IMG/VR virus record: IMGVR_UViG_3300031621_000017
Coordinates: 1-32,154 of that record
DNA from: a virus
Strand: one strand, 5' to 3'
Length of the DNA: 32,154 nt
Shown: in pieces, positions 2 to 17,899 of the stretch
How the letters are laid out: each line of letters begins with the position of its first letter
Numbering within the stretch: the stretch's first letter is position 1
Notes under the pieces: generated by a model
The model's database searches: none
What the model was told of the DNA's origin: nothing
What the model saw: the letters and a program-made list of their open reading frames with translations, nothing else
Program-made: the position numbers and the translations under genes

Positions 2-3000
2 TTTCTTCAGGTATTTTTAAATGGTATTCTTCTCGATCCAGCCGTAGACTACGTAGCAACAACAGGTAGTAGTATAGTACTTACCGTAGGTGCTACAACT
101 AGCGATCTTGTACAGATAGAAACTTTCACGCAAATAATCGGTACAGGTGACATACTTGTAGATACTTTTCCCGTATCTAGTACACAAACAGCTTTCACTC
201 TTAGTCAAGATCCTATTAATAAAAGTAATATTAGTGTCTACGTTGAAGGCGTATATCAAGAAAGCTCAACCTATAGTTTATCAACTACTACTCTTACTCT
301 TTCCGAATCTCCTGCGAACGGTACTACTGTTGAAGTAGTTATCGGAACTCGCAATGTAACTCTCGATAATATAGCAGATCTCACAATTAGCGGCACTCTA
401 CATGCGGGCGCGCTTGACTTGGGCGACGCAAACATAATCAATGTGAATGAAATCTCTCTTGATACAATCAAAGGCGATGCAGACGCAAACACAAATATTA
501 CTTTTGCAGGCAGTGACGTAACTACCTTTACACAAGGTGGAACAGAGCGTCTACGTTTAAATACTACTGGTGCAGAGGTTACTGGAAATATCGTAGTTTC
601 AGGAACTGTTGATGGTCGCGATGTCGCTGCAGATGGTGTAACGGCTGATGCCGCACTGTCAAGAGCAGGCGGAGCCATGGGCGGAGCTATAACAACTAAC
701 TCAACCTTTGATGGACGTGACGTATCAGTTGACGGTACTAAGCTTGACGGTATAGAATCAGGTGCAACCGCAGATCAAACCGATGTGGAAATAAGAGCCG
801 CTGTAGCATCAGCTTCAGACTCGAATGTCTTTACCAATGCAGACCATAGCAAGCTCGACGGCATAGAAGCCGCCGCAGACGTAACTGACGCTACAAATGT
901 TACAGCGGCAGGGGCTTTGATGGATTCAGAAGTAACTAACCTTGCACAGGTTAAGGCTTTTGCTTCTTCTGACTACGCTACAGCAGCTCAGGGCACTACA
1001 GCTGACGCAGCACTTCCGAAAGCTGGTGGTACAATGACTGGTACTCTTGCAATGGGTGCTAATGCGATTACTAGTACAGGCACAATCTCAAGCGGGGCTA
1101 TTACAAGTAACGGACAATCACTCTTTAAGGGTGCAGATACATCAAGTACTGCGTATGCAGCTCAGTTTCAAAATAGCGCGGGAACCACAATTCTTAGGGC
1201 GCGTAATGATGGTCGCGTCCTAATACCCTCTGGTTACCTATACGTTCAATCTAGTGATGGCATCTACTCTACTGGCTCAATCAAGGCTCGTGGCGGAATC
1301 ACCAACGACGGAAGTAACAACCTGTCGATTAGCTCAGGGGGTTCTGATATTGAATTTAATAGCAAGAACTTTACTTCAGTTGGCACAATCTCGAGTGGTG
1401 CTATATCCGCAACAGGGTCAGCAAACTCAGGTAGTGCGGCTCATGTTCCTGCGGTCATGGCCTCTGGTAATTACGGTGGTGGTATAGCAACAAGAGATAC
1501 AAAAGAAAGTGGTTGGTATCAGCAAACAAGTGGCGCTGATTGGCACTTCTACCACAACCGAACAGTCGCATCTGATACTCCTGCATCTAAGATAGTTCTT
1601 AGCTTTAACTCTTCAGGCAACGCTACCTTTGCAGGGACTATATCTTCAGGTGCTATTACAAGCAGTGGGACCATAACTACGAACGGCAGTTTTGTTGGCG
1701 TTAACGCAATTGTAGATAACGTAATTGCTAAAACATCTGCTGGTAATGTATCGGTTAAGACAAACGCAGGGGGTTCAATAGCCCGATTTAATAATAATTT
1801 AAGCACTGATTTTTTTGGCTCAATTGACGTAACAGGCTCAGTTGTAGCCGATGGGCTTACTGTAAATGCAACTGGATCGAGTTATCCAACAATATCACAT
1901 TCCAATGGCAATAGAATTCAATTACAGCCAAGTTACAATTACTACAATGCCTATAGTCACATTTTTAGTAGCCTTAATGGAACAACTAATCATTTAACTA
2001 TTGCAAACACAGGCAACGTCAACATCCCCAATGGCGGCCTAATGGTGGGAAGCACCACTGCGGCAAGTGCTACTTTAGAAGTGGGTGTTTTAACCTCTGG
2101 CTCTACTGGAAACGTGATAATAAACCACGAAGGCGGTGTCACTCCAGTATTGCAAGTAAAAGCGCGTACAAATAGGGCTATATTAGCAGTACAAGATAAT
2201 GATACTTCTGGTTACATTAGTTCTGAGAATGGGATTTTTAGCATAGGTAGAAATTCAGGGTCTAATGCTAATAATATTAATATTGACGCAAATAATCGCG
2301 TGGGTATTGGCACTAGTTCAGTAGCAGGATATAGCAACGGTTCACTGCAAGTTCATGCTACTTCAGGTTTAGGTGCTGGCTTATGGCTAACAGAAAGCGC
2401 GTCAGGGTCTGGAGTTTCAGATGGTTTAAGAATTGTTCAATACAATAATAACTCTGTGTTATACAACGGTGAATCTGGTTATATGGCGTTTGGTACTGCT
2501 GGCTCAGAAGCCGCAAGAATCGATGCCTCTCAAAATCTTTTGGTGGGGACTACTTCTACCTCTACGCAAAACCTTACGTCTGGTGGCGGTACAGTTATAA
2601 GTTCAGCAGGAGGAGTAGCAAGCGCGTATCAAAGCGTTAGTGCATCAGACCCTGTTGTTAGCTTAAATAACACTGGCGTAGATTCTTCAATCATTGCCTT
2701 CCGCAAAGACGGCTCAACCGTAGGTAGTATTGGTAGTAACAGTGGTTATTTGTTTGTAGGCGGTACAGCGGGAAGTGATGCCTTTTTGTCATTTGGTGAA
2801 AGCGGAGTAAGACCTGCCACATCTGCTGGTGCGGCTAGGGATGCCGCCATTGACCTTGGTGGATCGAGTAATCGCTTCAAAGACGCTCATTTTTCGGGAA
2901 CGGTGAACACCGAAGCAGTCAGCACAAACTCCCTAGACCTCCAAGCAATCGCTGTAAGCAACACAGATACAGCGGTTGACGTTTTCGTCTATGACACACG

Positions 3001-5152
3001 CAAAGACAGCGATGGTGGTGCATGGAGAAAGCGCACACAGAATACAAGTTGGTACAACGAAGCACTCAACACAAGTACTCGTGGAGCAAGAAAAGAATTT
3101 CCAAGTGTTGCTGTGATTGTGGCAGAGGCTGCTACGATTACTATTTATGACGGTGATGATCCAGACATGCCGATGTGGATGGTGTTTACAGTTACTGTTA
3201 CGTATTCTGGAGGAATCATTACTGCGGGTAACTCAGGTATCGTAACAGCTATTTCAGCACTCAACGGAACGCTTGTTGTTCCTACAGGGCAAAGCACAGG
3301 AAATGCCGGAGTTAATGGTGTTTTTGCAATTGCATTTCCGTCTGACAGCGCAATCAAACACGGCTTTACGCAACTTTCCACCAATTTTAAACTCGATATT
3401 GCCCGAAGAAATGCGTCTAATGGTAGTGGCAACAACTACCTTTCCGGCATAAGTTTGCCTCGTCTTGTAGGTACTGGCGCCAACGATGTAGCCATGACCG
3501 TCCTCCCCAACGCACCAATCGACGCTGACACTGGACTACCTGTGCCAACCATAGCGGTTGCTACGAATGGTGGTGTGAGTGTGATTAAGGATGATGGGAC
3601 TGTTGTTGATATTACTAATACTCAAGATAGCAGTACCTTTAATTTTTGCCAAGACGTTCAATTTAGAAGTGATGGCGGTATTGTATGGTCAGCAGATAGT
3701 ACAGGTAATAGTGCTGCACCAAGATTTGTTCACGTACTTCATACAATACCAGCATCGGATTTTGTTCATACAGTAGTAGCAAATCCTACCAATACAGACG
3801 AATTTTATGCCCGGTCTAGTACTGCAGCTGACGCCCGATTCATCTCCACCTCAGGTCTTCAGGCATTAAAAGAAAGCACAGGTAGAACAAATGTTGGAAC
3901 AACAGATGGTCTTAGTAGTTTTGCTTATAACAAAGCAGATGCAGCTAAAGGACTTACTAATCATATCAACTCCGACTACAACACAGGTTGGATGCACGGC
4001 GACATCAAATTAGCCACACTTTCGGATACTGATACTACGAATGCTGTTGGCACAGAGTTGGTTACTAATGGTGATTTTAGTAACGGAACTACAGGTTGGA
4101 CAGACTATAGCGGAGGGACTAATTTCAGTGTGGTTAACGGACAGTTTGTAGCCGTAGATGATGCAGATCAAGTTATCACCGTTGTCGCTGGTAAAACTTA
4201 TGTCGTTGAATGTGATGTAATTGCAGGTACAGGAATTAATATTTATGGTAACGGACAATCTACTGGCGCCGCCGTAGGGTTTGTTCGTAGTGCAACTAAT
4301 CGAGATAATACATTTGTTGCGCCTACTAATGAAATTAGTGTGTATATCTACGCTGGCGCAACTGTAGACAACATCTCAGTACGCCTAGCCGAAGAAGACC
4401 GCAGTGTTAACGGCAAAGGTCTCCAAGTATTCGGCACAGTTACGAAGACGGCTGTAGCAACAGGTGCTGACCTTGTGGGTTACAGTGGGTTTAGTGCTAG
4501 TAACTATTTACAACAGCCTTACAATGCAGACCTAGACGTTGGTACTGGTGACTTTAGTGTGATGGGTTGGGTAAAGGCTTCTGCCATGCCCACCACTGAA
4601 TTTCTTATAGAACGAGGCCGTGACTCAGGGTTTAATATTTATTGTAGCAGTACGAGCATTGTATTTAGAATAATAAGTGCGGTAATCCATACCGAAGCAT
4701 TTCCTTTATCGATTTGGAAGCACGTTGTTCTGAAGCGTGAAAGCGGCGTTGCCTCAGTTTATGTCAACGGTGTGTTGGGATCTTCTGTAGTAAATACGGC
4801 CAACACTTCCGTAGCGTCTAATACTACTATTGGGGTGCATACAGGTATAGGAGATCCTGCGGCTAACAAATCCCTAGCCCTTTGGCGTATTTCAAATACA
4901 GCACCATCAGCAACCCAAATCGCTAAAATCTACAACGATGAGAAGCACCTCTTTCAAACGAATGCAAAGGCAACTCTTTACGGAACATCGAATGCAGTCA
5001 CAGCACTTGCATATGATGACGATACAGAATTGCTTCATGTCGGAACAAGCGCAGGTCGCTCAGAATTTCAAGGACTCCGAAGAGTCAATAACACAACAGA
5101 CGCAGTGAGTGCAGCAATCAGTGCAAGCAACGGCTTCATAGTAGAGGAATAA
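2..5152 (+). CDS. Tail fibre / adhesin protein with C-terminal carbohydrate-binding-like and LamG-like domains (5' partial)
   Basis: The frame is open from nt 2, so the gene begins before the window; the TTG at 419 is only an internal codon. 1716 residues are visible. The first ~110 show two tandem beta-sandwich-type repeats (VFLNGILLDP and VYVEGVYQESS-like stretches), usual near the attachment end of phage fibres. Then come fibre-shaft modules: KLDGIESGATADQ at about nt 741, LPKAGGTMTG at about 1014, and repeated TISSGAIT units. SSNRFKDAHFSGTV marks the end of this shaft. From about nt 2965 there is a segment common in marine phage structural proteins (DTRKDSDGGAWRKRT). A carbohydrate-binding-like unit follows (nt ~4040-4390, NGDFSNGTTGW), then a LamG/concanavalin-like unit (nt ~4545-4955, GDFSVMGWVKA, WKHVVLKRESG). 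The role is inferred to be binding host surface glycans. A GAGGA ribosome site for the next gene lies in its last codons. Confidence 0.85.
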   Translation, partial: FLQVFLNGILLDPAVDYVATTGSSIVLTVGATTSDLVQIETFTQIIGTGDILVDTFPVSSTQTAFTLSQDPINKSNISVYVEGVYQESSTYSLSTTTLTLSESPANGTTVEVVIGTRNVTLDNIADLTISGTLHAGALDLGDANIINVNEISLDTIKGDADANTNITFAGSDVTTFTQGGTERLRLNTTGAEVTGNIVVSGTVDGRDVAADGVTADAALSRAGGAMGGAITTNSTFDGRDVSVDGTKLDGIESGATADQTDVEIRAAVASASDSNVFTNADHSKLDGIEAAADVTDATNVTAAGALMDSEVTNLAQVKAFASSDYATAAQGTTADAALPKAGGTMTGTLAMGANAITSTGTISSGAITSNGQSLFKGADTSSTAYAAQFQNSAGTTILRARNDGRVLIPSGYLYVQSSDGIYSTGSIKARGGITNDGSNNLSISSGGSDIEFNSKNFTSVGTISSGAISATGSANSGSAAHVPAVMASGNYGGGIATRDTKESGWYQQTSGADWHFYHNRTVASDTPASKIVLSFNSSGNATFAGTISSGAITSSGTITTNGSFVGVNAIVDNVIAKTSAGNVSVKTNAGGSIARFNNNLSTDFFGSIDVTGSVVADGLTVNATGSSYPTISHSNGNRIQLQPSYNYYNAYSHIFSSLNGTTNHLTIANTGNVNIPNGGLMVGSTTAASATLEVGVLTSGSTGNVIINHEGGVTPVLQVKARTNRAILAVQDNDTSGYISSENGIFSIGRNSGSNANNINIDANNRVGIGTSSVAGYSNGSLQVHATSGLGAGLWLTESASGSGVSDGLRIVQYNNNSVLYNGESGYMAFGTAGSEAARIDASQNLLVGTTSTSTQNLTSGGGTVISSAGGVASAYQSVSASDPVVSLNNTGVDSSIIAFRKDGSTVGSIGSNSGYLFVGGTAGSDAFLSFGESGVRPATSAGAARDAAIDLGGSSNRFKDAHFSGTVNTEAVSTNSLDLQAIAVSNTDTAVDVFVYDTRKDSDGGAWRKRTQNTSWYNEALNTSTRGARKEFPSVAVIVAEAATITIYDGDDPDMPMWMVFTVTVTYSGGIITAGNSGIVTAISALNGTLVVPTGQSTGNAGVNGVFAIAFPSDSAIKHGFTQLSTNFKLDIARRNASNGSGNNYLSGISLPRLVGTGANDVAMTVLPNAPIDADTGLPVPTIAVATNGGVSVIKDDGTVVDITNTQDSSTFNFCQDVQFRSDGGIVWSADSTGNSAAPRFVHVLHTIPASDFVHTVVANPTNTDEFYARSSTAADARFISTSGLQALKESTGRTNVGTTDGLSSFAYNKADAAKGLTNHINSDYNTGWMHGDIKLATLSDTDTTNAVGTELVTNGDFSNGTTGWTDYSGGTNFSVVNGQFVAVDDADQVITVVAGKTYVVECDVIAGTGINIYGNGQSTGAAVGFVRSATNRDNTFVAPTNEISVYIYAGATVDNISVRLAEEDRSVNGKGLQVFGTVTKTAVATGADLVGYSGFSASNYLQQPYNADLDVGTGDFSVMGWVKASAMPTTEFLIERGRDSGFNIYCSSTSIVFRIISAVIHTEAFPLSIWKHVVLKRESGVASVYVNGVLGSSVVNTANTSVASNTTIGVHTGIGDPAANKSLALWRISNTAPSATQIAKIYNDEKHLFQTNAKATLYGTSNAVTALAYDDDTELLHVGTSAGRSEFQGLRRVNNTTDAVSAAISASNGFIVEE

Positions 5153-5155
5153 AAA

Positions 5156-6328
5156 ATGGCAGTTAAATTTACAAAACCAGAAATTAACGTTCGCGAGAAG
5201 CTTGCTGAACTGGACAAACCTTCAGGAATTGCCGGAGAGGCGATGCTACGTGCTGAGACCCCGCAGGAGCAGTTTAATCTGATTGGCGCTGGTCGTAGGA
5301 ACATGATTATTAATGGTGATATGCGAGTAGCTCAGAGAGGCACTTCTACATCAAACGTAACAACTAACGGCTATTTTACTGTAGATCGATGGTTTGTTGA
5401 GGGTGGAGGACAAGTCGCAGTTGATACCTCTCAAGTGACTAGCGATAATCCAGGCGGCTTTCCGTGCAGTATAAAGGTTTCTCGTAATAGCACGGGCGGT
5501 ACTCTAGCTGCTAACCATGCCTCCATACTTGCGCAAAAAATTGAAGCTTCTACTCTGACGGGACTGGGTTACGGAACTCCTAATGCAAAAAGCATGACAC
5601 TTTCGTTTTATGTAAAAGCGAGCATGGTAGGTAAGTACGCATTAAATCTATATGCTCAGGATAGCGGAAATGCTCGTATATACACTCATACTTACACTGT
5701 TGATACTGTGGGGGAATGGAAAAAAATAAAAATTACTGTACCCCCAGATTCTGCAGGTAATTTTAACAACGACAATGGAATTGGAATGTATATGCAATGG
5801 TTTTTCAGAGCCGGATCGACTTACACTACTGGAACCGATACAGATAAATGGTTGCCTTGGGTATCAGCAAACTATGGTAATTACGCCGCAGGCCAAGTAG
5901 ATATATTCAGTCAAGCAAATAGTTACTTTCAAATCACAGGCGCCCAACTCGAAGTCGGCAAAGTCGCCACCCCATTCGAGCATCGTTCATACGGCGAAGA
6001 ACTGGCGCTGTGTCAGCGTTACTTCTACAAGTGGGAGAGCGATGCTGGTTATAACTTTGCGGCGATGGGCTATTCCTACTCAACTACCGGCATAAATGCC
6101 ATACTTCACTTCCCTGTAACAATGAGAGCCCAGCCTTCGCTGACTGTTGCTGGTAACTGGAGAGCCTGCTCTGCAACTTGTGTCACAGGGTCAGTCAGCG
6201 GAGGCTCATACAATACAGACTCTTCATGCATTCAGATGACCACTAGTGGAATATCGGCTGCAGTACCTTATATGTTGGGAGACGCTAACGATGCAACTGC
6301 ATCTTTATCTTGGAACGCGGAGCTATAA
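5156..6328 (+). CDS. Tail protein with carbohydrate-binding-like domain
   Basis: This 390-residue protein starts at an ATG 3 nt after the previous stop, with GAGGA about 8 nt upstream. After a short N-terminal stretch it carries NMIINGDMRVAQRGTS (about residues 48-63), the signature opening of a beta-sandwich domain frequent in phage tail and fibre proteins. The core (residues ~65-280) contains SMTLSFYVKAS and EWKKIKITVPP, as in carbohydrate-binding modules, and ends with ITGAQLEVGKVATPFEHRSY, the usual closing motif. The C-terminal ~110 residues (ELALCQRYFYKWES onwards) form a second domain also common in phage tail proteins. It sits between two fibre genes, so a receptor-binding or fibre-tip role is likely. 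Specific ligand unknown. Confidence 0.75.
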   Translation: MAVKFTKPEINVREKLAELDKPSGIAGEAMLRAETPQEQFNLIGAGRRNMIINGDMRVAQRGTSTSNVTTNGYFTVDRWFVEGGGQVAVDTSQVTSDNPGGFPCSIKVSRNSTGGTLAANHASILAQKIEASTLTGLGYGTPNAKSMTLSFYVKASMVGKYALNLYAQDSGNARIYTHTYTVDTVGEWKKIKITVPPDSAGNFNNDNGIGMYMQWFFRAGSTYTTGTDTDKWLPWVSANYGNYAAGQVDIFSQANSYFQITGAQLEVGKVATPFEHRSYGEELALCQRYFYKWESDAGYNFAAMGYSYSTTGINAILHFPVTMRAQPSLTVAGNWRACSATCVTGSVSGGSYNTDSSCIQMTTSGISAAVPYMLGDANDATASLSWNAEL

Positions 6329-6330
6329 TT

Positions 6331-6867
6331 ATGTATACATTTAAAATTAGTCAACATGAAACTCACGAAGATCATATATTTTCTTCTACTTCTAATTGCT
6401 TTATTCCTTTGGCTTCTGGCAATATGGACTATCAAAGAGTACTCGATGATATTATCGAACAAGGTGCTGACTGCTTTACAGGGGATATACCTACTGAGCT
6501 ACAAACTGCCGCAGATGCAAAACAATTTGCACAACAGGTAGAAGCGTATAAAACAGCGAAAGCTCGCGTAGCGCAGTATCAACTTTCTGTAGGTGTACCA
6601 GAATCTACTCAAACTATTACTACTGGAATGCAAGAGTGGAACGAAGAAACAGGAGAAATGGAGGATGTTACAGAAACAGTTGTAATTCCTGCAATTCCTG
6701 CACTCGAAGCAACAGTCGAAGAAACAACTTATGATTTTGATACTGATACTAGCACAACAGCTACAGTCGCAAACCCAGTGATCGTAAAAGACAACGAAGA
6801 AAGAGCAGCAGCTCAAGCAATAATTGATGCAACCCCAGTGCCTGTAAAAACGCACGTTGACGGGTAA
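6331..6867 (+). CDS. Probable tail fibre assembly / tail-associated protein
   Basis: 178 residues. The ATG at 6331 is chosen because GGAG lies 8 nt before it and it starts 2 nt after the upstream stop; the longer TTG alternative at 6310 would overlap the previous gene. The segment GNMDYQRVLDDIIEQGADC followed by a short acidic-proline stretch resembles the N(x)DYQ-type motif of small phage tail-fibre assembly and XkdW-like proteins. The middle is helical and Gln/Ala-rich (residues ~55-85, AQQVEAYKTAKARVAQYQL), and the C-terminal half is strongly acidic and Thr-rich. Fibre assembly chaperones commonly lie beside the fibre they fold, as here before the 1267-aa fibre. The functional call is by motif and neighbourhood, so moderate. 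Confidence 0.5.
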   Translation: MYTFKISQHETHEDHIFSSTSNCFIPLASGNMDYQRVLDDIIEQGADCFTGDIPTELQTAADAKQFAQQVEAYKTAKARVAQYQLSVGVPESTQTITTGMQEWNEETGEMEDVTETVVIPAIPALEATVEETTYDFDTDTSTTATVANPVIVKDNEERAAAQAIIDATPVPVKTHVDG

Positions 6868-6885: not shown

Positions 6886-9800
6886 ATGGCTTTAACTAAA
6901 ATTACGAATAGTGCGATAGCTGATGATATCGGTCTTGGAGGAAATCCAACAACAAGTACTCAGACCGCAGGAAACAGCACCACACGAATCGCAACAACTG
7001 CATTCGTTTCTACTGCCGTGGCTAATTTAGTAGGCTCTGCTCCTGAAACTCTCAATACTTTAGCAGAACTTGCAACTTCTATTGGAAACAGTGCTACTCT
7101 TTCGAGTACACTTACTAGTAGTATTGCTACTAAACTACCTTTAGCGGGTGGTACTATGACTGGTAATCTCAACCTTGGAGACAATGTTAGAGCAAGGTTT
7201 GGTCTTGACTCTGATTTGCAGATTTATCATAATGCTTCACATAGCTATATTGATAATGCCGGTACTGGGAATCTCTATATTCGTAATGGATCGAAGAATA
7301 GTATTTTTGCAAGAGCAGGTGGAGAGATAATTCTTTATCATAATGATTCTGGAAAACTAGCCACCACCTCCACAGGCATAGACGTAACAGGCTCAGTGAC
7401 AAGCACACAGCTAAAAATTGAAGGTACAGAGCCTCTTCTTTTCTTCAACGACACAACCACAGGTCACGATGATTGGAAGATGTATGCTGATTGGGATCAA
7501 TTTCAAATACAGCAATATGTTAATGATACGACTTGGACTTCAAGATTAGTTTTTGCGGCTAATGGTAACGCCAGCTTCTCAGGAGCAATAACAGCCAACG
7601 CAGGTGTAGTGGTAGATACAATGACGCTTGACGGTTCTACTCTGTCAGCAACAGGCGACTTTATACTAGATTCTGAAGGCGATATTATTCTTGATGCTAA
7701 CGGAGCAGACTTTCTTTTAAAAGATTCGGGTACTTTATTTCTTTCGGTTACAAACAGCTCTGGCGATACGATATTAGCAAACGCTGTACAAGATAAAGAT
7801 ATTTTTATCAGAGGTAACGATGGCGGAAGTACCATCACAGCCCTCACCCTTGATATGTCAGATGCAGGAACAGCAACATTTAATAATCATGTAAAAATTT
7901 CAGACGACTCGCAACTTAGCTTTGGAGCGGGTAATGATGCAACCATATCTCATAATTCTTCAAATAATAATTTTCAAATTACAAATAGTAATACAAGTGG
8001 GGGTATGGTAATACAGAATAATAGCTCTGCCGGAGGTATTGCACTACAACCTGTCATAAATGAAAATGCAGTTTTTTGTTCACCCAACGCTCAAGTAAGT
8101 TTATATCACAATGGAGTAGCTAAATTTCAAACAACCTCTGGCGGTGTTCAGGTTACGGGAGATATAAGCAATGCATCTGGAGACCTAACACTAGACGTTG
8201 CAGGAAACATTAATCTTGATGCTGACGGTGGTGAGTTTAGATTTAGAGATGGCGGTACGTTGTATGCTACAGCCTATCAAGGTGGTGGAGGTAACTTTTA
8301 TTTAGCTAGTGCTGTTCAAGACAAAGACCTTATCTTTCAAGGCAACGATGGCGGTTCAACCATCACAGCCCTCACCCTTGATATGTCAGCGGCAGGTAAA
8401 GCTACTTTTAATTCTACAATCTCTAGTGGTGCTATTACAGCCACAGATGCTAACGCAAATCCTAAATTAAAAGCCGCATACAATTCTTCAAATTACATCG
8501 GAATCAGCCACGAGAAAATAAATGTTCAGGGTGGCGGTGTAGGTCTAATAATTCAAGGCAACGGAGTTGATAGAGCAACATTTGCGTCTGGGGGAGGCTT
8601 AACTCTTGCAAACGGTAATTTAACACTGACATCAGGTAGCGTGACAAGCACAGGGCTTACGGTTGGCAATACCAACATTGGTAGTAACTCAAGTCACCTT
8701 GTTAATTTAACTATTAATAACAACGGCTATATCGGCACTACTTATAATAGTACTGCAATTCAGCTTTCAACCGTTGGTGCGGCTACGTTTGCTTCTAGTA
8801 TAACGTCAGCAGGAGTCACTTCTAGCAACAGCATAACCATGAACGCAGGAAATCTGTCCTTAAATAGCACCTCTGACGGCAACCAAGCATTTAGATACTA
8901 TCGGGCAGATGGAACGCTTGTTGGGCAAATATATCCTTACAATAACCGTTACAATGTTCAAACGTATAACAACCAAGGCCTAAGATTAAAAAGTCATGGT
9001 TCAGGTCAAATTGAGTTAGAAGGTAATGTTGTTATAAACGAAGACAGCGCAGACGTAGACTTCAGAGTCGAATCAAACGACAACGCTAATATGCTGTTTG
9101 TTGATGGTGGTAACAATGCGGTCGGTATTGGTAACGCTGTTGCATCTAGTATGAATGCAGGGGCTAATCAATTAGTTGTAGGTAGTGGCTCTACTGGACA
9201 GGGTATAACTCTTTACTCTAGCACTTCTACAGCAGGTTCCATTCACTTTGCAGATGGAACTTCAGGTGATGCGGCTTATCGTGGTCAGCTAGTGTATAAC
9301 CACAATGGCGATTACATGGCTATCCTTACAGCCGCACAGGAACGCATGCGCATCGACTCCAGCGGTAATCTTTTGGTGGGGACTACTTCTACAGGAATAA
9401 ATACTTCTTCATCAGTCAAAGGACACAATTTCTTTGAGCACGGATACGTAGTTCATGCTCGTTCTGGGCAAACTGTAATGAGCCTGAATCGCCAAACAAA
9501 TGACGGCACTATCGCTGACTTCCGCAAAGACGGCACAACCGTAGGTAACATTTCTAGTGTAGGCGGCACAGATATAAAAGTTACTTTTTCTAGTGATGGC
9601 GACCAGTACATTACAGGCAACTCTGCCGCTAACTATTTATCATTCAGCGCGGCTAATCAGGAGCGACTCAGGATAGATAATCAGGGGCGCGTGGGTATTG
9701 GTGTCAATCCTGCATACAAATTGCATATTTCAGGTGCTACAAACGCCAATGACGTAGTAATACAGAACTCTAGTCATGGTGTAGCTTTAAGGATGCAAGC

Positions 9801-10689
9801 TAACACTAACTCCATGAACATATTTACTACTGGTTCTAAACCTCTTTACTTAGGAACAAATAATACAGCAAATCAAGTAGTGCTTGATACGAGCGGAAAT
9901 CTTTTGGTAGGGACTACTAGCACTTCATCGAGCACTCAAGGTATAAAACTTAGAGGCGACATTGATGCCATAATAGCAATGGCAGATGGACAACAATCTG
10001 CGTATTTCGGTAGGCTAAATTCCGATGGAGAGATAGTTTCGTTCAAAAAAGACGGCACAACCGTAGGTAGTATTGGTAGTCGTATTGGCACTGGAATTAC
10101 AATAGATAGCGGTGGATCGACAGACGGTCTTTTAAAAAATAATGGAGCTGAAAGTTTTGGTTGGAATGCTAATTATTTCTATCCAAGAACAGACAACAGC
10201 AAAGACTTAGGTTTAGGCGTTTTACGGTGGAAAGACCTCTATTTATCAGGCGGAATCTACTTAGGCGGTACAGGCGCGGCTAATAAGTTGGATGACTACG
10301 AAGAGGGGACTTGGACTCCTGTTCTAAACTTTGGCGGAGCAAATACAGGGATGACAGCTAACGTACAAGTAGGCAGATACACTAAAATTGGCCGTATGGT
10401 CTATTCATCTTTCAACATTCAACTAACAAATAAAGGCACATCAACAGGTGGCGTCACAATTACAGGCAGTCCATTTGGAAACTATACAAGCAGTCAAAAT
10501 AACGCAGGCACAGTTATTTGTGAAGTTAGTGGAGTAGATTGGCCTCAAAGCGGTGTATACGGCATGATTTGGTCAGATTCAAAAATTTATTTGCGTTCAC
10601 AAGGGCTTACAAGTTATGCAAATATTACTAACACTAGTTTCTCAAATGGAACTAGAATTTTTGGAATGATGGTGTATGAAACCGCATAA
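6886..10689 (+). CDS. Tail fibre protein, 1267 aa
   Basis: Starts at an ATG preceded by AAAAGGAAA. The N-terminus (residues ~35-70, STTRIATTAFVSTAVANL then APETLNTLAELATSIG) matches the coiled/beta segment widely found in phage tail fibres. Next come the LPLAGGTMTGNLNLGDNV unit and DLQIYHNASHSYIDNAGTG, typical marine phage fibre shaft modules. Two copies of an AVQDKD...GNDGGSTITALTLDMS module sit exactly 528 nt apart. Later units carry ERMRIDSSGNLLVGTTST, QERLRIDNQGRVGIG and FKKDGTTVGSIGS repeats. The last ~135 residues start with KLDDYEEGTWTPVL, a compact C-terminal domain frequent at the tips of phage fibres; no S74 chaperone motif is seen here. It probably forms a trimeric fibre used for adsorption. 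It shares modules with both flanking fibre genes. Confidence 0.85.
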   Translation: MALTKITNSAIADDIGLGGNPTTSTQTAGNSTTRIATTAFVSTAVANLVGSAPETLNTLAELATSIGNSATLSSTLTSSIATKLPLAGGTMTGNLNLGDNVRARFGLDSDLQIYHNASHSYIDNAGTGNLYIRNGSKNSIFARAGGEIILYHNDSGKLATTSTGIDVTGSVTSTQLKIEGTEPLLFFNDTTTGHDDWKMYADWDQFQIQQYVNDTTWTSRLVFAANGNASFSGAITANAGVVVDTMTLDGSTLSATGDFILDSEGDIILDANGADFLLKDSGTLFLSVTNSSGDTILANAVQDKDIFIRGNDGGSTITALTLDMSDAGTATFNNHVKISDDSQLSFGAGNDATISHNSSNNNFQITNSNTSGGMVIQNNSSAGGIALQPVINENAVFCSPNAQVSLYHNGVAKFQTTSGGVQVTGDISNASGDLTLDVAGNINLDADGGEFRFRDGGTLYATAYQGGGGNFYLASAVQDKDLIFQGNDGGSTITALTLDMSAAGKATFNSTISSGAITATDANANPKLKAAYNSSNYIGISHEKINVQGGGVGLIIQGNGVDRATFASGGGLTLANGNLTLTSGSVTSTGLTVGNTNIGSNSSHLVNLTINNNGYIGTTYNSTAIQLSTVGAATFASSITSAGVTSSNSITMNAGNLSLNSTSDGNQAFRYYRADGTLVGQIYPYNNRYNVQTYNNQGLRLKSHGSGQIELEGNVVINEDSADVDFRVESNDNANMLFVDGGNNAVGIGNAVASSMNAGANQLVVGSGSTGQGITLYSSTSTAGSIHFADGTSGDAAYRGQLVYNHNGDYMAILTAAQERMRIDSSGNLLVGTTSTGINTSSSVKGHNFFEHGYVVHARSGQTVMSLNRQTNDGTIADFRKDGTTVGNISSVGGTDIKVTFSSDGDQYITGNSAANYLSFSAANQERLRIDNQGRVGIGVNPAYKLHISGATNANDVVIQNSSHGVALRMQANTNSMNIFTTGSKPLYLGTNNTANQVVLDTSGNLLVGTTSTSSSTQGIKLRGDIDAIIAMADGQQSAYFGRLNSDGEIVSFKKDGTTVGSIGSRIGTGITIDSGGSTDGLLKNNGAESFGWNANYFYPRTDNSKDLGLGVLRWKDLYLSGGIYLGGTGAANKLDDYEEGTWTPVLNFGGANTGMTANVQVGRYTKIGRMVYSSFNIQLTNKGTSTGGVTITGSPFGNYTSSQNNAGTVICEVSGVDWPQSGVYGMIWSDSKIYLRSQGLTSYANITNTSFSNGTRIFGMMVYETA
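7831..8389 (+). repeat. Direct repeat pair inside the 1267-aa fibre gene
   Basis: About 31 nt beginning accatcacagccctcaccc is identical at 7831-7861 and 8359-8389, 528 nt (176 codons) apart and in frame. It sits in a longer but more diverged protein repeat (DILANAVQDKD-type module followed by TALTLDMS). The conserved core suggests an in-frame duplication or recurrent gene conversion of a shaft module. Confidence 0.8.
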
Positions 10690-11137: not shown

Positions 11138-14100
11138 ATGTCAAAATCCAAAGCAAGATTCCTCGCTGAACTTCTATCTTCAGACGGTAAGGTAATAAAA
11201 GCAAAATCAGAAGCGTCTACTATTATAGTCGGTGATTTACCTACTATTCCAAATTCCAAGCTACAAAACTCAAGCGTAACAATTGCAGGTTCAGGGCTTT
11301 CTCTTGGTGCATCTTTAACTTTAGATACAGCGGATGTTACTGAGCATACTGATTATAAGTACTATACAGATGCTCGAGCAGATGCTCGCATTGTAAATGC
11401 AGGAAGCGCAAACTGGAACACAGCCTACACTGTAGCAAATGCTGCTCTACCAAAAGCTGGCGGTACACTCACAGGCAACCTATCACTTGGCGATAACGTC
11501 AAGGCTCAGTTTGGTGCGTCTAATGATTTACAGATTTATCATGATGGTAGCCATAGCCGAATTGTAGATGCGGGGACAGGCATAATGACAATTCAGGCAT
11601 CGTCGCAGTTGGGAATTTACAACGCAGACGGTACACAAGTATCTGCTGAGTTTGTTAATGACGGCAAAGTTGGACTTAGATTTAGTGGCTCTGAAAAACT
11701 AGCAACGACAGCCACAGGAGCCGATATCACTGGGGTTCTGACAGCCGATGGGCTTACTGTAGAAGGTAACAGCATATTTACTACTGCTGACAACAGCGCA
11801 CAGGTTACGCTTATTTCTACAGATACTGATGCTCTTGTTGGACCAAAGCTTAACCTTTGGAGAAACTCTGGAACTGGGACAAACGGAGACTTAATTGGTG
11901 AAATCACCTTTACTGGTGAAGATACAATAGGTTCTACAAATGTTTTTGCTTCTATTTCATCTATTGCCGAACAGACTAACAACGGTGCAGAAGACGGTTC
12001 TTTACACTTTAATACCCTTTTAAATGGCACTTTAGCAAAAAGACTTTCAATAGGTTCGGCAAGTTCAGGCGGAGACATCAGCTTTTATGATTCTTCTGGC
12101 ACAAGTCAAAATTTCTTCTGGGATAGTTCTACCTCGCGACTAGGGCTAGGCACAACGGTTCCAACAGGATTGCTTTCATTCCAAACAGCAACTGGCACTA
12201 ACAACACTAGCTATAACATTATTGACGCAACTACAGATAATCCAACTTACAAAGCACAAATTAATTTAGTACGAGAAGGCTCAAGCGGTCAGCTTGGATG
12301 GGCGTTTCTTACAAACAGCGTAGGCTCACCAACTGAGAGATTAAGAATATCGCATGACGGCTCACTATCCACCCCAACCGCAGGAACCTCTAACGTCCGA
12401 TTCGGTGTCAACGCAGGTAACAGCATTCAGAGCGGTGGTAATTATAATACTGTCATAGGCGATGAAGCAGGTACTGCGATTACTACGGGTGATAACAATG
12501 TTGCAGTCGGTCATGCCGCTTTAAGCGCAAACACCACAGGCCAATATAATATTGCTGTGGGTAAGGGTGCTTTATTAGCTAATACTACAGGTATTAGAAA
12601 TACTGCGACAGGTGAGGCGGCTTCAGGCTCAAACACCACCGCAAACAGCAACACAGCAACAGGTTATGGTGCTTTATATACGAACACTACAGGTGCAGGT
12701 AATACCGCAGTCGGAGACTCTGCTTTAACCTCAAACACTACCGCATCTAACAACACTGCTGTTGGTTTAAGTGCTTTATACGCAAACACCACAGGCACTT
12801 ACAACGTAGCTCAAGGCTATCAAGCCCTTCAAAATAACACTACGGCTAGTAACAATGTCGCTGTAGGAAGGCAAGCTCTTCGCGTAAACACCACAGGTGA
12901 AGCTAATACTGCTGTTGGTTCTTTAGCACTAGACGCTAATACGACAGGCGGCTTTAATACAGCACTGGGTGTTTATGCTTTAAGTGGAAACACTACTGCC
13001 GATAATAACACAGCCGTTGGTTGGAGTTCTTTAAAAACAAACACCACAGGCAATCGTAATACTGCTAGTGGTTTTGAATCCTTAAAACTTAACACTACAG
13101 GATTAAGTAACGTAAGCATTGGCGCATACTCTTCAAAGAACAACACTACCGCTTCATATAACGTAGTGGTTGGTGATGCCGCTTTCTTTATCAACACAAC
13201 AGGTGCTAATTCTGTAGCAGTTGGTTATGAGGCTCTTAAAGCTAATACCACAGCTTCTAACAACACAGCGGTTGGTTATCGTTCTTTACTCGCAAACACC
13301 ACAGGCACAAACAACGTAGCTCTTGGTTCAAGTGCAGGTGCGGCTCTTACCACAGGCTCATCAAACATTCTCATAGGGTCAAATACTGGTGACGCATTAA
13401 CTACTGCGAATGAAAATGTTGCAGTAGGGCATTTTTCTATGTCAAACAATGTTTTAGGTGCTAAAAACGTAGCTATTGGTACAAGTACACTATCTGCTAC
13501 GAACCCTGCATCTGCCGCTGATATGTACAATGTCGCTGTAGGCTTTCAAGCAGGTAACGCAGTAACCACAGGCTATGATAACACTCTAATAGGTGGTCTT
13601 ACAGGTGATTCTTTAGACGTAGGGCATAGAAATGTTGCGCTAGGGCGCAGTGCATTAGGGGCTGATACAAAAGGAAACAAGTCAGTAGCTATAGGTTTTT
13701 CAGCCCTTGATTCGCAAAACTTTACATCTGCTACAGACGCATACAACACCGCAATAGGATATATCGCAGGTTATGCAGTAACCACAGGCATTAAAAATAC
13801 AATCCTTGGGGGTCTTGCGGGTGACGCAATTACTACAGGCAATACTAATGTTGCGTTAGGTTATGCCGCACTTAGTGCTAACACCACAGCATCTAACAAC
13901 ACAGCGGTGGGAACAAGTGCATTAACCGCTAATACTACAGGCGCAAGTAATACAGCCGTTGGTGTAAATGCTTTAGCTCAAACCACCACTGGTAGTTCTA
14001 ACTCTGCACTGGGTTTAAATTCTTTACTTTCAAACACCACAGGCACAAACAACGTAGCAATGGGGCAACAGGCTTTAAATAATAACACCACAGCTTCTAA

Positions 14101-17100
14101 CAACGTAGCAGTAGGTTTTCAGTCTCTATACGCAAACATTACAGGGGCTTCTAATGTTGCCATAGGGCAAGGCTCTTTAGGATCAAACACTACAGCCGCT
14201 AACAACGTAGCTGTTGGTAAAAATACTTTAGGCTTAAACACCACAGGCACAAACAACGTAGCGGTTGGGGCTAACGCTTTAGATGCTAATACGACCGCCT
14301 CTAATAACGTGGGTATAGGACTTAATGCCGCAGGAGGAACAACCACTGGCGGTAATAATGTTGCTATTGGAACAAACAGCTTGTTGACAAACACTACAGG
14401 CAATTCAAATGTTAGCATCGGTACGTATGCTCTTAACGCAAACACCACAGCATCTAACAACACAGCAGTGGGTTATGCTTCTTTAACCGCAAACACCACA
14501 GGCAGAGACAACACGGCTCTGGGTTATAGCGCAGGGGCAACTAACACTACAGGCCTTGAGAATACCGCCATTGGCATGTACGCCTTGAGATTCAATACTA
14601 CAGGAGAAACAAACACTGCTGTAGGCTTACAGGCGCTTCACCGAAATACAACGGCTAGTAACAATACGGCTGTTGGTAGAAATGCTATGGAGGCAAATAC
14701 CACAGGCACTACTAATGTTGCAGTTGGTGCAAATTCTTTAGATGCTAATACTACAGGGGCTTCAAACGTAGCAGTGGGTTATTTTGCTTTAACAGACAGT
14801 GTGTTAGGTGGTTTGTCTACTGCTGTCGGCACCTATGCTTTACAAAAACAAAACCCTGCAACTGCCACCAATATGTACAATTCGGCATTTGGCTATAACG
14901 CAGGAAATAAAATAACCACAGGCATCCAAAACACCCTCATTGGTGGCCTCGCAGGTGATGCGCTTACTGAGGCTGACGCAAACGTAGCTATTGGTAAAGG
15001 AGCATTAACTACAGATACTCTTGGAAGCTCAAGTGTTGCAGTAGGAAATAATGCTTTAACAAATCAAAACTTTACGTCTGCTACAGATACTTACAACGTA
15101 GCAGTGGGTAAAAACGCAGGTCTTGCAGTAACCACAGGCACTCAAAACACATTCGTGGGGGGCTTGTCAGGTGATGCGAATACTACTGCTTCTTACAACA
15201 CAGCGGTTGGTTATGCTTCTTTAGGCGCAAACACTACAGGGGCTGACAATACTGCGGTCGGTAGAACTGCGTTGGAAAACAACACTACCGCATCTAACAA
15301 CACCGCAGTTGGAAAGGCGGCTTTGGCGCAAAATACAACAGGCGCACAAAATACTGCTTTAGGCTCTCTTGCTTTAAACTTAAACACTACAGGCTCACAA
15401 AATGTTGCAGTAGGTACTTATGCTTTAGATGCTAACACTACTGGAGAGAACAATACTGCACTTGGTTGGGGTTCTTTAACTGCTTCTACTACAAGTTCAG
15501 GAAACACAGCAATAGGTTCTATAACTTTATTTTCAAACACGACTGGCTATGGTAATACAGCGATGGGTCAGGAGTCTTTAAGATACAATACTATAGGAGC
15601 TAACAACGTAGCTTTAGGTTATCAGGCTTTAGTAGCAAACACCACAGCAAGCTATAACACTGCTGTTGGAGCTTTAGCTTTAGACGCTAATAGCACTGGT
15701 AGTAGCAATACAGGTTTAGGTTCAAGGGCTTTAAGTTCTAATACCACAGGAGCAAGTAACACTGCCGTTGGTGAAGGGGCAATGGTTACTACCACTACAG
15801 GCGGAAATAACACCGCAGTGGGTGCAGGTGCTTTAATATCTAACACTACAGGCGGCTACAACACCGCATTGGGTTTCTCATCTTTAAGCGCAAACACCAC
15901 AGGCGCGATAAATACAGGAATTGGCTATCAAAGCCTTTATTCCAATACAACTGGTTATCAAAATACGGCAATCGGTGGGGCTTCAGCTTATTCAAATACA
16001 ACGGGGTTTTTTAACGCCGCGTTAGGTCAGGCGGCGTTGTATTCTAATACCACAGGAGATAACAATACAGCACTAGGTATTTATGCTCTAAACGGTAACA
16101 CGACAGCAGATAACAACACAGCAGTGGGTAAATCAGCTTTATTCGCAAACACCACAGGTGGAGCAAATGTAGCCGTTGGTAAAGACGCATTAAAATCTAA
16201 CACCACGGCTTCCAACAACACCGCAGTAGGCTACCAATCACAGGAAGCAACTACTACAGGGGCGGCTAACACATCGGTTGGACTACACTCACTAAGGTTT
16301 AACACCACAGGCAATAACAGCGTAGCAGTCGGGTATTTAACATTAGATGCTAACACCACAGGCGAAAGAAACGTAGCTTTAGGTGCTGAAGCACTAGGTC
16401 ACAACACAACAGCATCGGCTAACTCCGCAGTGGGTTACAAGGCACTGTTTGAAAACACGACAGGCGCTAGTAATACTGCATTGGGTCAAGACGCTCTAAG
16501 AAACAACACTACCGCCTCTAACAACACCGCAGTGGGTTTGTCGGCTTTAAAAGCAAACATTACAGGAATTAATAACACTGCGTTAGGCTACAATGCAGGA
16601 CTGAGTATGACTAGTGGTCAGCAAAATGTCTTTGTAGGCGCTCAATCTGGTGACGCAATTACAACTGGCGAAAATAATACAGCCGTAGGACAAGGTGCTT
16701 TAACCAATGATGATGTTGGTTTAGGGTCAACAGCCATAGGTACGCAAGCTATGGTTCATCAAAACATGGCTAGTGCGGGTTACACTTTAAATACCGCAGT
16801 TGGATTTCAGTCGCTATACTACAACGTCACTGGTGCGGCAAATACAGCTTTAGGCTATCGTGCCGCTTTTGGTAGTGTTTCTGGAGCTAGTCACAGTTCT
16901 AACACAGCTATCGGGTATCACGCGCTCAAGGACATTACTACAGGTAATTCAAACACGGCAGTCGGCGCGGGTTCTTTAGACGCAAACACCACAGCCTCAG
17001 ATTGTACAGCAGTTGGTACAAATGCTTTAAGCACAAACACTGTAGGTCAGAGTAATACTGCCGTAGGTACAAGTGCTTTACAGGCAAACCTCAATGGCAC

Positions 17101-17899
17101 ACGAAACACAGCAGTGGGAAGGACAGCCTTACAATCTAATACGTCAGGTAGCGATAACACTTCAATGGGTTATTTTGCTATGTACAAAACCACAAGTGGC
17201 GGTTTAAACTCAGCATTCGGCAAAGACGCTTTAAGAGAACAAACGTCAGGTGCTAATAACGTAGCTTTGGGTTATCAAGCATTAACCGCCAACACCACAG
17301 CGTCTAACAACACAGCCGTTGGTCATCAGGCTTTAGGCTCAAACACCTATGGCGCTCAAAATACAGCCGTAGGCAGGTCTGCGATGGCTTCTTATGTTGG
17401 TAATTACAACAATACTGCAATAGGTTATGGCGCAGACTCTACCGGAACTGGCGGTAATGGTAATATTAGCATAGGGTATGAAGCACAAAAATCAGCAGTA
17501 AACTCAGCAGGGCAGTGTACGCTAGGTAATAGTGCTATTACTAACTTGCGCTGTAACGACACCTCAATTTCATCATTATCAGACAGCCGTGACAAGACTG
17601 ACGTTATAGACTCACCTTATGGTTTGGACTTTATTAACACTGTAAGACCTGTTCAGTTCCTTTGGGATACTAGAGACGGCAACGCAAAAGACGGCAGCAC
17701 TCGCATAGGCTTCTTAGCACAAGAATTACTAGCGGCTACTGACGGCAACAACGCTGTATTAGATTTAGTACTGGATGATAACCCTGAGAAGCTAGAAGCT
17801 AAATACGGCAACCTGTTACCTATCGCTATACAAGCAATACAAGAACTCTCAACACAACTAGATGCCGCACTTGCCCGCATCACAACTCTAGAAGGATAA
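11138..17899 (+). CDS. Giant tail fibre with YadA-like 17-residue repeats and C-terminal peptidase S74 chaperone
   Basis: 2253 residues from ATG 11138, behind the promoter at 11054. The N-terminal ~430 residues carry fibre modules (DVTEHTDYKYYTDARADARI, LPKAGGTLTGNLSLGDNV, DLQIYHDGSHSRIVDAGTG) close to those of the 1267-aa fibre. Residues ~437-2125 are a nearly uninterrupted tandem array of a 17-residue unit, roughly N(T/V)AVGxxALxxNTTGxx, resembling the parallel beta-roll of YadA-type trimeric adhesins. The last 106 residues are an intramolecular chaperone of the peptidase S74 family: the SDSRDK motif puts the catalytic Ser at residue 2148 and Asp at 2149 (codons from nt 17579), followed by RIGFLAQEL and a terminal coiled coil. 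In this family the chaperone trimerises the fibre, then cuts itself off just before the Ser. A long receptor-binding trimer is inferred. Confidence 0.9.
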   Translation: MSKSKARFLAELLSSDGKVIKAKSEASTIIVGDLPTIPNSKLQNSSVTIAGSGLSLGASLTLDTADVTEHTDYKYYTDARADARIVNAGSANWNTAYTVANAALPKAGGTLTGNLSLGDNVKAQFGASNDLQIYHDGSHSRIVDAGTGIMTIQASSQLGIYNADGTQVSAEFVNDGKVGLRFSGSEKLATTATGADITGVLTADGLTVEGNSIFTTADNSAQVTLISTDTDALVGPKLNLWRNSGTGTNGDLIGEITFTGEDTIGSTNVFASISSIAEQTNNGAEDGSLHFNTLLNGTLAKRLSIGSASSGGDISFYDSSGTSQNFFWDSSTSRLGLGTTVPTGLLSFQTATGTNNTSYNIIDATTDNPTYKAQINLVREGSSGQLGWAFLTNSVGSPTERLRISHDGSLSTPTAGTSNVRFGVNAGNSIQSGGNYNTVIGDEAGTAITTGDNNVAVGHAALSANTTGQYNIAVGKGALLANTTGIRNTATGEAASGSNTTANSNTATGYGALYTNTTGAGNTAVGDSALTSNTTASNNTAVGLSALYANTTGTYNVAQGYQALQNNTTASNNVAVGRQALRVNTTGEANTAVGSLALDANTTGGFNTALGVYALSGNTTADNNTAVGWSSLKTNTTGNRNTASGFESLKLNTTGLSNVSIGAYSSKNNTTASYNVVVGDAAFFINTTGANSVAVGYEALKANTTASNNTAVGYRSLLANTTGTNNVALGSSAGAALTTGSSNILIGSNTGDALTTANENVAVGHFSMSNNVLGAKNVAIGTSTLSATNPASAADMYNVAVGFQAGNAVTTGYDNTLIGGLTGDSLDVGHRNVALGRSALGADTKGNKSVAIGFSALDSQNFTSATDAYNTAIGYIAGYAVTTGIKNTILGGLAGDAITTGNTNVALGYAALSANTTASNNTAVGTSALTANTTGASNTAVGVNALAQTTTGSSNSALGLNSLLSNTTGTNNVAMGQQALNNNTTASNNVAVGFQSLYANITGASNVAIGQGSLGSNTTAANNVAVGKNTLGLNTTGTNNVAVGANALDANTTASNNVGIGLNAAGGTTTGGNNVAIGTNSLLTNTTGNSNVSIGTYALNANTTASNNTAVGYASLTANTTGRDNTALGYSAGATNTTGLENTAIGMYALRFNTTGETNTAVGLQALHRNTTASNNTAVGRNAMEANTTGTTNVAVGANSLDANTTGASNVAVGYFALTDSVLGGLSTAVGTYALQKQNPATATNMYNSAFGYNAGNKITTGIQNTLIGGLAGDALTEADANVAIGKGALTTDTLGSSSVAVGNNALTNQNFTSATDTYNVAVGKNAGLAVTTGTQNTFVGGLSGDANTTASYNTAVGYASLGANTTGADNTAVGRTALENNTTASNNTAVGKAALAQNTTGAQNTALGSLALNLNTTGSQNVAVGTYALDANTTGENNTALGWGSLTASTTSSGNTAIGSITLFSNTTGYGNTAMGQESLRYNTIGANNVALGYQALVANTTASYNTAVGALALDANSTGSSNTGLGSRALSSNTTGASNTAVGEGAMVTTTTGGNNTAVGAGALISNTTGGYNTALGFSSLSANTTGAINTGIGYQSLYSNTTGYQNTAIGGASAYSNTTGFFNAALGQAALYSNTTGDNNTALGIYALNGNTTADNNTAVGKSALFANTTGGANVAVGKDALKSNTTASNNTAVGYQSQEATTTGAANTSVGLHSLRFNTTGNNSVAVGYLTLDANTTGERNVALGAEALGHNTTASANSAVGYKALFENTTGASNTALGQDALRNNTTASNNTAVGLSALKANITGINNTALGYNAGLSMTSGQQNVFVGAQSGDAITTGENNTAVGQGALTNDDVGLGSTAIGTQAMVHQNMASAGYTLNTAVGFQSLYYNVTGAANTALGYRAAFGSVSGASHSSNTAIGYHALKDITTGNSNTAVGAGSLDANTTASDCTAVGTNALSTNTVGQSNTAVGTSALQANLNGTRNTAVGRTALQSNTSGSDNTSMGYFAMYKTTSGGLNSAFGKDALREQTSGANNVALGYQALTANTTASNNTAVGHQALGSNTYGAQNTAVGRSAMASYVGNYNNTAIGYGADSTGTGGNGNISIGYEAQKSAVNSAGQCTLGNSAITNLRCNDTSISSLSDSRDKTDVIDSPYGLDFINTVRPVQFLWDTRDGNAKDGSTRIGFLAQELLAATDGNNAVLDLVLDDNPEKLEAKYGNLLPIAIQAIQELSTQLDAALARITTLEG
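12446..17512 (+). repeat. 51-nt coding tandem repeat array (17-residue YadA-like units)
   Basis: Units of 51 nt encode NTAVG-x-x-AL-x-x-NTT-(G/A)-x-x; the array spans about 5.07 kb, which corresponds to roughly 95-100 units (estimated from length, not counted one by one). NTTG and NTTASNN variants alternate irregularly. Five units are expanded to 21 residues (63 nt), at 13466, 13682, 14816, 15032 and 16727. Short stretches such as aacaccacaggc recur nearly unchanged in many units, which indicates recent duplication or gene conversion. The array stays in one open frame throughout. Confidence 0.9.

What the first reader, a model, noticed from the sequence alone, without database searches (positions are those of the whole stretch)
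12446..17512. A ~5-kb coding array of 17-residue YadA-like repeats in one phage fibre
Roughly 95-100 in-frame 51-nt units build a beta-roll-like stalk ending in a self-cleaving S74 chaperone. NTAVG resembles the NSVAIG-type repeat of bacterial trimeric autotransporter adhesins, although YadA units are nearer 14 residues. A repeat stalk of this length in a phage fibre could act as an unusually long reach or glycan-binding surface. Length changes by recombination are likely, which could tune host range.
Basis: partly seen in the sequence, partly recalled or inferred. Interest (0 to 1): 0.78.

Follow-up and report, generated by a model that had tools for sequence, protein, structure and literature searches.

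The report
Very long repeat-built phage tail fibre
This gene encodes an unusually long version (98 repeats, against a typical 27) of a tail-fibre design already widespread in marine phages: a rod of stacked 17-residue repeats folded by a chaperone domain predicted to cut itself off, so it is a record-sized member of a known family rather than something new.

Summary
ORF 11138-17899 (2253 aa) holds 98 in-frame 17-residue units at 12446-17512 (99 counting a degenerate first one), followed by a Peptidase_S74 chaperone domain with an intact Ser-Lys pair (S2148/K2153).

The kind is known. PHROG structural-protein families cover the array. 158 phage records and hundreds of IMG/VR contigs carry relatives. 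A 2014 paper reported YadA-like and S74 domains in a pelagiphage fibre. Bacterial proteins of Ignavibacteria and Bacteroidota share the array plus S74.

New here:
- Length. 63 distinct complete arrays have a median of 27 units and a maximum of 52, so 98 is extreme. Others of at least 74 (truncated contig), about 76 and 78 exist.
- Repeat type. The unit matches the YadA-type beta-roll layer in register (about 1 in 3,000 shuffles as good), with three extra residues. It scores below Pfam's YadA_head cut-off, and the fold is unproven.
- No recent expansion. Synonymous sites are saturated and no exact repeat exceeds 28 nt.
- How relatives differ. Near-identical fibres keep their unit number. Differences look like exchange of whole arrays or tips.

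Receptor, glycan binding and host-range tuning are untested.

The parts
11138..12391 (+). N-terminal part of the fibre (residues 1-418): presumed virion-attachment and shaft region
   Evidence: No Pfam match at E<=10; relatives of this part occur in viral contigs, some without the array
12392..12445 (+). degenerate first unit and start cap (NVRFGVNAGNSIQSGGNY, residues 419-436)
   Evidence: Counted as a unit by the matrix; the cap segment is matched by 556 viral-contig stretches
12446..17512 (+). array of 98 units, consensus NTAVGxxALxxNTTGxx, 17 residues each with five 21-mers and one 20-mer
13415..13846 (+). irregular cassette A: eight units with two 21-mers, residues 760-903
   Evidence: 62% nucleotide identity to cassette B at a shift of 1350 nt (26 units)
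14765..15196 (+). irregular cassette B: eight units with two 21-mers, residues 1210-1353
17513..17578 (+). linker between array and chaperone, residues 2126-2147 (AGQCTLGNSAITNLRCNDTSISSL type), predicted end of the mature fibre
   Evidence: alignment of 25 relatives; no separate receptor-binding domain lies between array and S74
17579..17896 (+). Peptidase_S74 (intramolecular chaperone auto-processing) domain, residues 2148-2253; dyad S2148/K2153, predicted self-cleavage just before S2148; C-terminal helix
   Evidence: Pfam PF13884; S, D, R, D, K invariant in 25 relatives; AF2 model matches 7dc3, 3gw6, 3gud; dyad equivalence from PMC8326128
2..10689 (+). three further fibre or tail genes upstream: 2-5152 (5'-open, Laminin_G_3), 5156-6328, 6886-10689; with 6310-6867

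Best explanation
This is a homotrimeric phage tail fibre. Its N-terminal part attaches to the virion. Its long distal part is a rod of about 98 stacked 17-residue layers of the YadA-type left-handed beta-roll (14-residue layer plus a three-residue loop extension). The C-terminal S74 domain trimerises the chains, guides folding, then cuts itself off before S2148, so the mature fibre ends about 22 residues after the last repeat, with the array at its tip. The invariant positions (G5, A3, V/I/L4, N1, T13) form the core. Six variable positions per unit (6, 7, 10, 11, 16, 17) would face outward, so the rod is both spacer and variable contact surface. At about 0.48 nm per layer it would reach about 47 nm. 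New versions arise by exchange of whole arrays or tips between phages, with slow unit-number change. Shown: the array, the S74 match with intact dyad, the register match to the beta-roll layer, wide length variation between relatives, stability between near-identical fibres. Inferred: trimer, fold, cleavage, reach, receptor contact.
For: Array and periodicity. S74 above cut-off, invariant S-D-x-R-D-K in 25 relatives, dyad spacing equal to endoNF S911/K916 and MyRF S587/K592 (PMC8326128). The AF2 model of the C-terminus finds MyRF ICA 7dc3 (probability 1.00), 3gw6 and 3gud, though E is 0.06 or more. Profile test against 350 natural beta-roll layers from bacterial YadA_head proteins: 11.05 against a null of 3.1 +/- 2.0, 1 of 3000 as good, with G15=@1, A3=@6, V/I/L4=@7, G5=@8, A/S8=@11. 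Solved beta-roll layers have an invariant G@8, a conserved A@6, loop insertions between @14 and @1, and a 4.8 A rise (PMC9543794). S74 follows the array in 54 of 63 distinct complete relatives. Position entropy. L254 and L258 are 99.96% identical over 917 aa and then carry different last units and S74. L309/L311 and L261/L274 share N-termini and differ in the array.
Against: YadA_head is not matched above cut-off anywhere in the fibre (best 14.7 bits against 25). The monomer AF2 model has pLDDT 70 and pTM 0.60 and no PDB match below E 0.19, none of the best being a YadA head. The site of the three-residue insertion is not resolved, since placements after @9 to @14 score alike. Trimer, handedness and cleavage were not tested. 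Whether the array or another fibre gene in the window touches the receptor is unknown.
Confidence: 0.66

Rival explanations
1. The array is only an inert spacer. Receptor binding is done by another of the window's fibre proteins (the Laminin_G_3 protein at 2-5152 or the 1267-aa protein at 6886-10689), and the array merely sets length.
For: Laminin_G_3, a sugar-binding fold, in the 2-5152 protein at 5.8e-10. The conserved-core, variable-surface pattern is also what an unconstrained spacer would show.
Against: After predicted cleavage no other domain lies beyond the array. In L254/L258 only the last units and S74 differ, and in L309/L311 the array itself differs, as expected of a recognition part.
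Confidence: 0.2
2. The repeat folds as a different two-strand 17-residue solenoid, not the YadA-type left-handed beta-roll, and resembles it only through the xAVG motif.
For: Below the YadA_head cut-off; 17 rather than 14 residues; PDB Foldseek gives only weak unrelated helices; weak hits to left-handed hexapeptide helices in sequence searches.
Against: Register test: the invariant G, the A two before it, the hydrophobic residue one before it, the G seven before it and the A/S three after it all coincide. A hexapeptide helix needs hydrophobics every six residues, but positions 10 and 16 are variable and polar.
Confidence: 0.28
3. The length is a recent tandem expansion, or an assembly artefact, in this one contig.
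For: Window count 98 against a median of 27 in relatives. Many related contigs end inside their arrays.
Against: No exact repeat above 28 nt; identical residues in different units share codons at 0.36, close to the roughly 0.25-0.33 expected from codon usage for T, V, A, G and S; identity does not fall with distance between units. Only one old internal duplication of 26 units, at 62% identity. Long arrays occur elsewhere: at least 74 in L298, about 76 in AG-345-L05, 78 in bacterial L380.
Confidence: 0.04
4. Unit number is a fast contingency switch that tunes reach or host range by slippage.
For: Unit numbers differ widely among relatives. One 7-residue indel between otherwise identical fibres of L017 and L019.
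Against: Clusters of near-identical fibres from separate contigs keep the same unit number: 33, 37, 30, 30, 27, 18. No long DNA repeats are present for slippage.
Confidence: 0.06

Closest known systems
PHROG families 23837, 4636 and 6002 (virion structural / tail spike proteins) and isolates such as Pelagibacter phage HTVC112P gp48, Methylophilales phage Venkman gp55, Prochlorococcus phage P-SSM2, Bacillus phage SPO1 gp2.52
   Same: Same 17-residue repeat followed by S74 at the C-terminus
   Different: 10 to 38 units in those isolates against 98 here; N-termini not compared in detail
Pelagiphage tail fibre with YadA and S74 domains, PMC3909814 (2014)
   Same: Marine phage fibre with a YadA-like C-terminal region and S74, in a genome island that recruits few metagenomic reads
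   Different: Not stated there to be a 17-residue array of this length; the sequences were not compared directly here
Trimeric autotransporter head (left-handed parallel beta-roll: YadA, BpaC)
   Same: Layer register: invariant G@8, A@6, hydrophobic @7, G@1, A/S@11 (PMC9543794)
   Different: 17 instead of 14 residues; no membrane anchor; below the Pfam YadA_head cut-off; S74 at the C-terminus
Endosialidase / MyRF intramolecular chaperone (ICA, Peptidase_S74)
   Same: Domain, dyad spacing, C-terminal helix
   Different: The upstream part is a 98-unit array rather than a short triple beta-helix
Ignavibacteria and Bacteroidota proteins with array plus S74 (for example L380, 78 units)
   Same: Same 17-residue unit and S74
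   Different: Encoded in bacterial genome contigs, several with signal-peptide-like N-termini; not shown to be phage genes
FhaB-like adhesion protein of Bodo saltans virus and other BFVD models
   Same: Predicted fold of the array (TM 0.94, 53% identity)
   Different: Virus of a eukaryote; the two predictions share the same kind of method

Membership tests
Peptidase_S74 / intramolecular chaperone (PF13884) | Profile match above the curated cut-off at the C-terminus | tested here: met
   34.3 bits against 22, residues 2148-2200
Peptidase_S74 / intramolecular chaperone (PF13884) | Ser-Lys catalytic dyad five residues apart | tested here: met
   S2148 and K2153, invariant in 25 relatives; S911/K916 in endoNF (PMC8326128)
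Peptidase_S74 / intramolecular chaperone (PF13884) | Fold of solved ICA domains | tested here: met
   The top 11 PDB matches of the C-terminal model are all chains of 7dc3, 3gw6 or 3gud; probability 1.00 for 7dc3, but E 0.06 or more
Peptidase_S74 / intramolecular chaperone (PF13884) | Trimerisation and self-cleavage | not testable with these tools
   needs biochemistry
YadA_head (PF05658) / trimeric autotransporter head | Profile match above the curated cut-off | tested here: not met
   no hit at E<=0.1 or E<=10; best 14.7 bits against 25
YadA_head (PF05658) / trimeric autotransporter head | 14-residue layer (15 in UspA1) | tested here: not met
   91 of 98 spacings are 17
YadA_head (PF05658) / trimeric autotransporter head | Invariant corner glycine (@8) with A@6 and hydrophobic @7, in register with natural layers | tested here: met
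   G5 98/98, A3 82/98, V/I/L4 89/98; register score 1 in 3000
YadA_head (PF05658) / trimeric autotransporter head | Left-handed parallel beta-roll trimer | tested here: inconclusive
   Single-chain AF2 only, pLDDT 70, no PDB match below E 0.19
Trimeric autotransporter (type Vc) | C-terminal membrane anchor domain | tested here: not met
   the only Pfam match in the protein is Peptidase_S74
Phage 17-residue repeat plus S74 fibres (PHROG 23837/4636/6002) | Profile match over array and C-terminus | tested here: met
   E 0, 3e-264, 2e-239

The most novel reading that the evidence does not exclude
The 17-residue unit defines its own subclass of trimeric beta-roll, absent as such from the Pfam and NCBIfam searches run here, shared by phages, giant viruses and bacterial secreted proteins, in which the mature fibre has no separate head and the variable faces of the rod itself are the recognition surface, renewed by swapping whole arrays or tips.
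Probability: 0.3. Interest if true: 0.55.

Novelty: new member of a known kind. Interest (0 to 1): 0.33.

Why it matters
It is among the longest phage repeat rods of this type seen here and gives a clear register between an abundant but unclassified viral repeat and the well-studied YadA-type beta-roll. That makes the fold of hundreds of marine phage fibres testable with one short construct. It also suggests that the variability of such fibres comes from exchange of arrays and tips, not from fast changes in repeat number.

Tried and rejected
Tandem expansion by slippage: rejected on synonymous saturation and absence of long exact repeats. Hexapeptide left-handed helix: weak sequence hits, but hydrophobic spacing does not fit. 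PDB match for the array: none significant by sequence or by fold. Alignments A1 and A2 of overlapping windows were useless because MAFFT aligned the overlaps; A3 with non-overlapping windows was gapless. One related-loci query was out of frame. Searching papers for the letters of the motif returned only noise. The apparent one-unit gap between L309 and L311 was an alignment artefact lying beyond the point where the arrays diverge.

Full report
What is there. The window is a complete IMG/VR virus record of 32,154 bases. Its left half carries four tail or fibre genes on the + strand. Its right half carries genes on the - strand that read as replication genes: adenosylcobalamin-type ribonucleotide reductase, DNA polymerase, helicase. 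ORF 11138-17899 (2253 aa) contains 98 in-frame repeat units from exactly 12446 to 17512, or 99 with a degenerate first unit. Consensus: N-T-A-V-G-x-x-A-L-x-x-N-T-T-G-x-x. G5 is present in all 98 units. Residue identity at lag 17 is 0.437, against 0.110 +/- 0.008 in shuffles.

Surroundings and C-terminus. After the last unit come 22 linker residues and a Peptidase_S74 domain. The S-D-x-R-D-K motif is invariant in 25 relatives. S2148 and K2153 have the spacing of endoNF S911/K916 and MyRF S587/K592, the dyad required for self-cleavage in trimeric chaperones (PMC8326128). An AF2 model of residues 1990-2253 (pLDDT 73) finds MyRF ICA and two phage intramolecular chaperones as its best PDB matches, at high probability for the first but E-values of 0.06 or more. 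Predicted cleavage leaves the array at the tip of the mature fibre, with no further domain.

What fold. Pfam's YadA_head is not matched above its cut-off. I therefore compared the 17-residue profile with 350 natural 14-residue layers from YadA_head proteins of a gammaproteobacterial order, plus the 1254-aa protein found earlier, allowing any circular register and one three-residue insertion. The best score was 11.05, against 3.1 +/- 2.0 for column-permuted profiles (1 of 3000 as good). It aligns unit position 15 with @1, 2 with @5, 3 with @6, 4 with @7, 5 with @8 and 8 with @11. In solved layers, G@8 is invariant, A@6 is conserved, and loop insertions sit between @14 and @1 (PMC9543794). The insertion point in our repeat is not resolved: all placements after @9 to @14 score 10.4-11.05. 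One caveat is that the natural layers were anchored on G with A@6 enriched. The AF2 model of 12 units gives two short strands per unit (pLDDT 70, pTM 0.60), no significant PDB match, and a near-identical predicted fold in BFVD proteins such as the FhaB-like protein of Bodo saltans virus (TM 0.94). The fold is thus a reasoned inference, not a result.

How common. PHROG 23837, 4636 and 6002 cover the array at E of 2e-239 or lower. 158 phage records match: HTVC112P with 30 units, Venkman 33, P-SSM2 38, CRP-7 24, SPO1 10. The array start is matched by 556 viral-contig stretches. Among viral contigs and isolates fetched, 63 distinct complete arrays have a median of 27 units and a range of 6-52. Longer incomplete ones have at least 74 (L298). 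AG-345-L05 has a 2491-aa ORF with about 76. Bacterial genomes of Ignavibacteria and Bacteroidota hold the same array plus S74, up to 78 units. A 2014 study of marine phages reported a YadA-like plus S74 fibre in a genome island that recruits few metagenomic reads (PMC3909814). The system is therefore known; the window's member is record-sized within this sample.

How it changes. Units share 50% nucleotide identity on average, with no decline over distance. No exact repeat exceeds 28 nt. Identical residues in different units use the same codon about as often as codon usage predicts, 0.36 against 0.25-0.33 for the residues counted. The only higher-order signal is an old duplication of 26 units, with 62% identity between its irregular cassettes. 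Near-identical fibres from different contigs keep their unit number (clusters with 33, 37, 30, 30, 27 and 18 units). One pair shows a 7-residue indel (L017/L019). By contrast L254 and L258 are 99.96% identical over 917 residues and then carry different last units and S74, and L309/L311 and L261/L274 share N-termini and diverge in the array. Phages whose ribonucleotide reductase is 87-94% identical carry other genes at the fibre locus. This pattern fits module exchange better than slippage.

Mechanism proposed. S74 trimerises and folds the chains and then leaves. The 98 layers stack to about 47 nm (98 x 4.8 A). Positions 6, 7, 10, 11, 16 and 17 carry the highest entropy (2.95-3.77 bits) and would face outward, giving a long variable surface whose tip, or whole length, contacts the host. 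Steps shown: array, S74 and dyad, register, length distribution, exchange pattern. Steps inferred: trimer, cleavage, reach, receptor contact. The host is unknown; closest named relatives of the reductase are in phages of marine and soil alphaproteobacteria at about 60% identity.

Noticed in passing
L154 13777-18345, L160 14071-19419, L165 6351-10580, L166 14059-18480, L167 11178-15719 (all - strand): Phages with 90-94% identical ribonucleotide reductase carry, close to that gene, a 1410-1783 aa protein made almost wholly of Thr/Ser-rich repeats (TTTAFNTSRGTTT type) between conserved N- and C-termini; its length differs in all five.
   Followed up: partly
L380 and other loci L326-L403: Bacterial genome contigs of Ignavibacteria and Bacteroidota encode proteins with the same 17-residue array and S74, several per genome, some with signal-peptide-like N-termini; they may be surface proteins rather than phage fibres.
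   Followed up: partly
L254 5103- and L258 6629-: Two fibres identical over 917 aa then carry different last repeat units and different S74 domains, a natural tip swap.
   Followed up: yes
window 2-5152: 5'-open fibre-like protein with a Laminin_G_3 domain near its C-terminus, a candidate sugar-binding protein beside the repeat fibre.
   Followed up: no
window 13415-13846 and 14765-15196: Irregular cassettes with 21-residue units recur 1350 nt apart and also appear in relatives' arrays; their structural role is unknown.
   Followed up: partly
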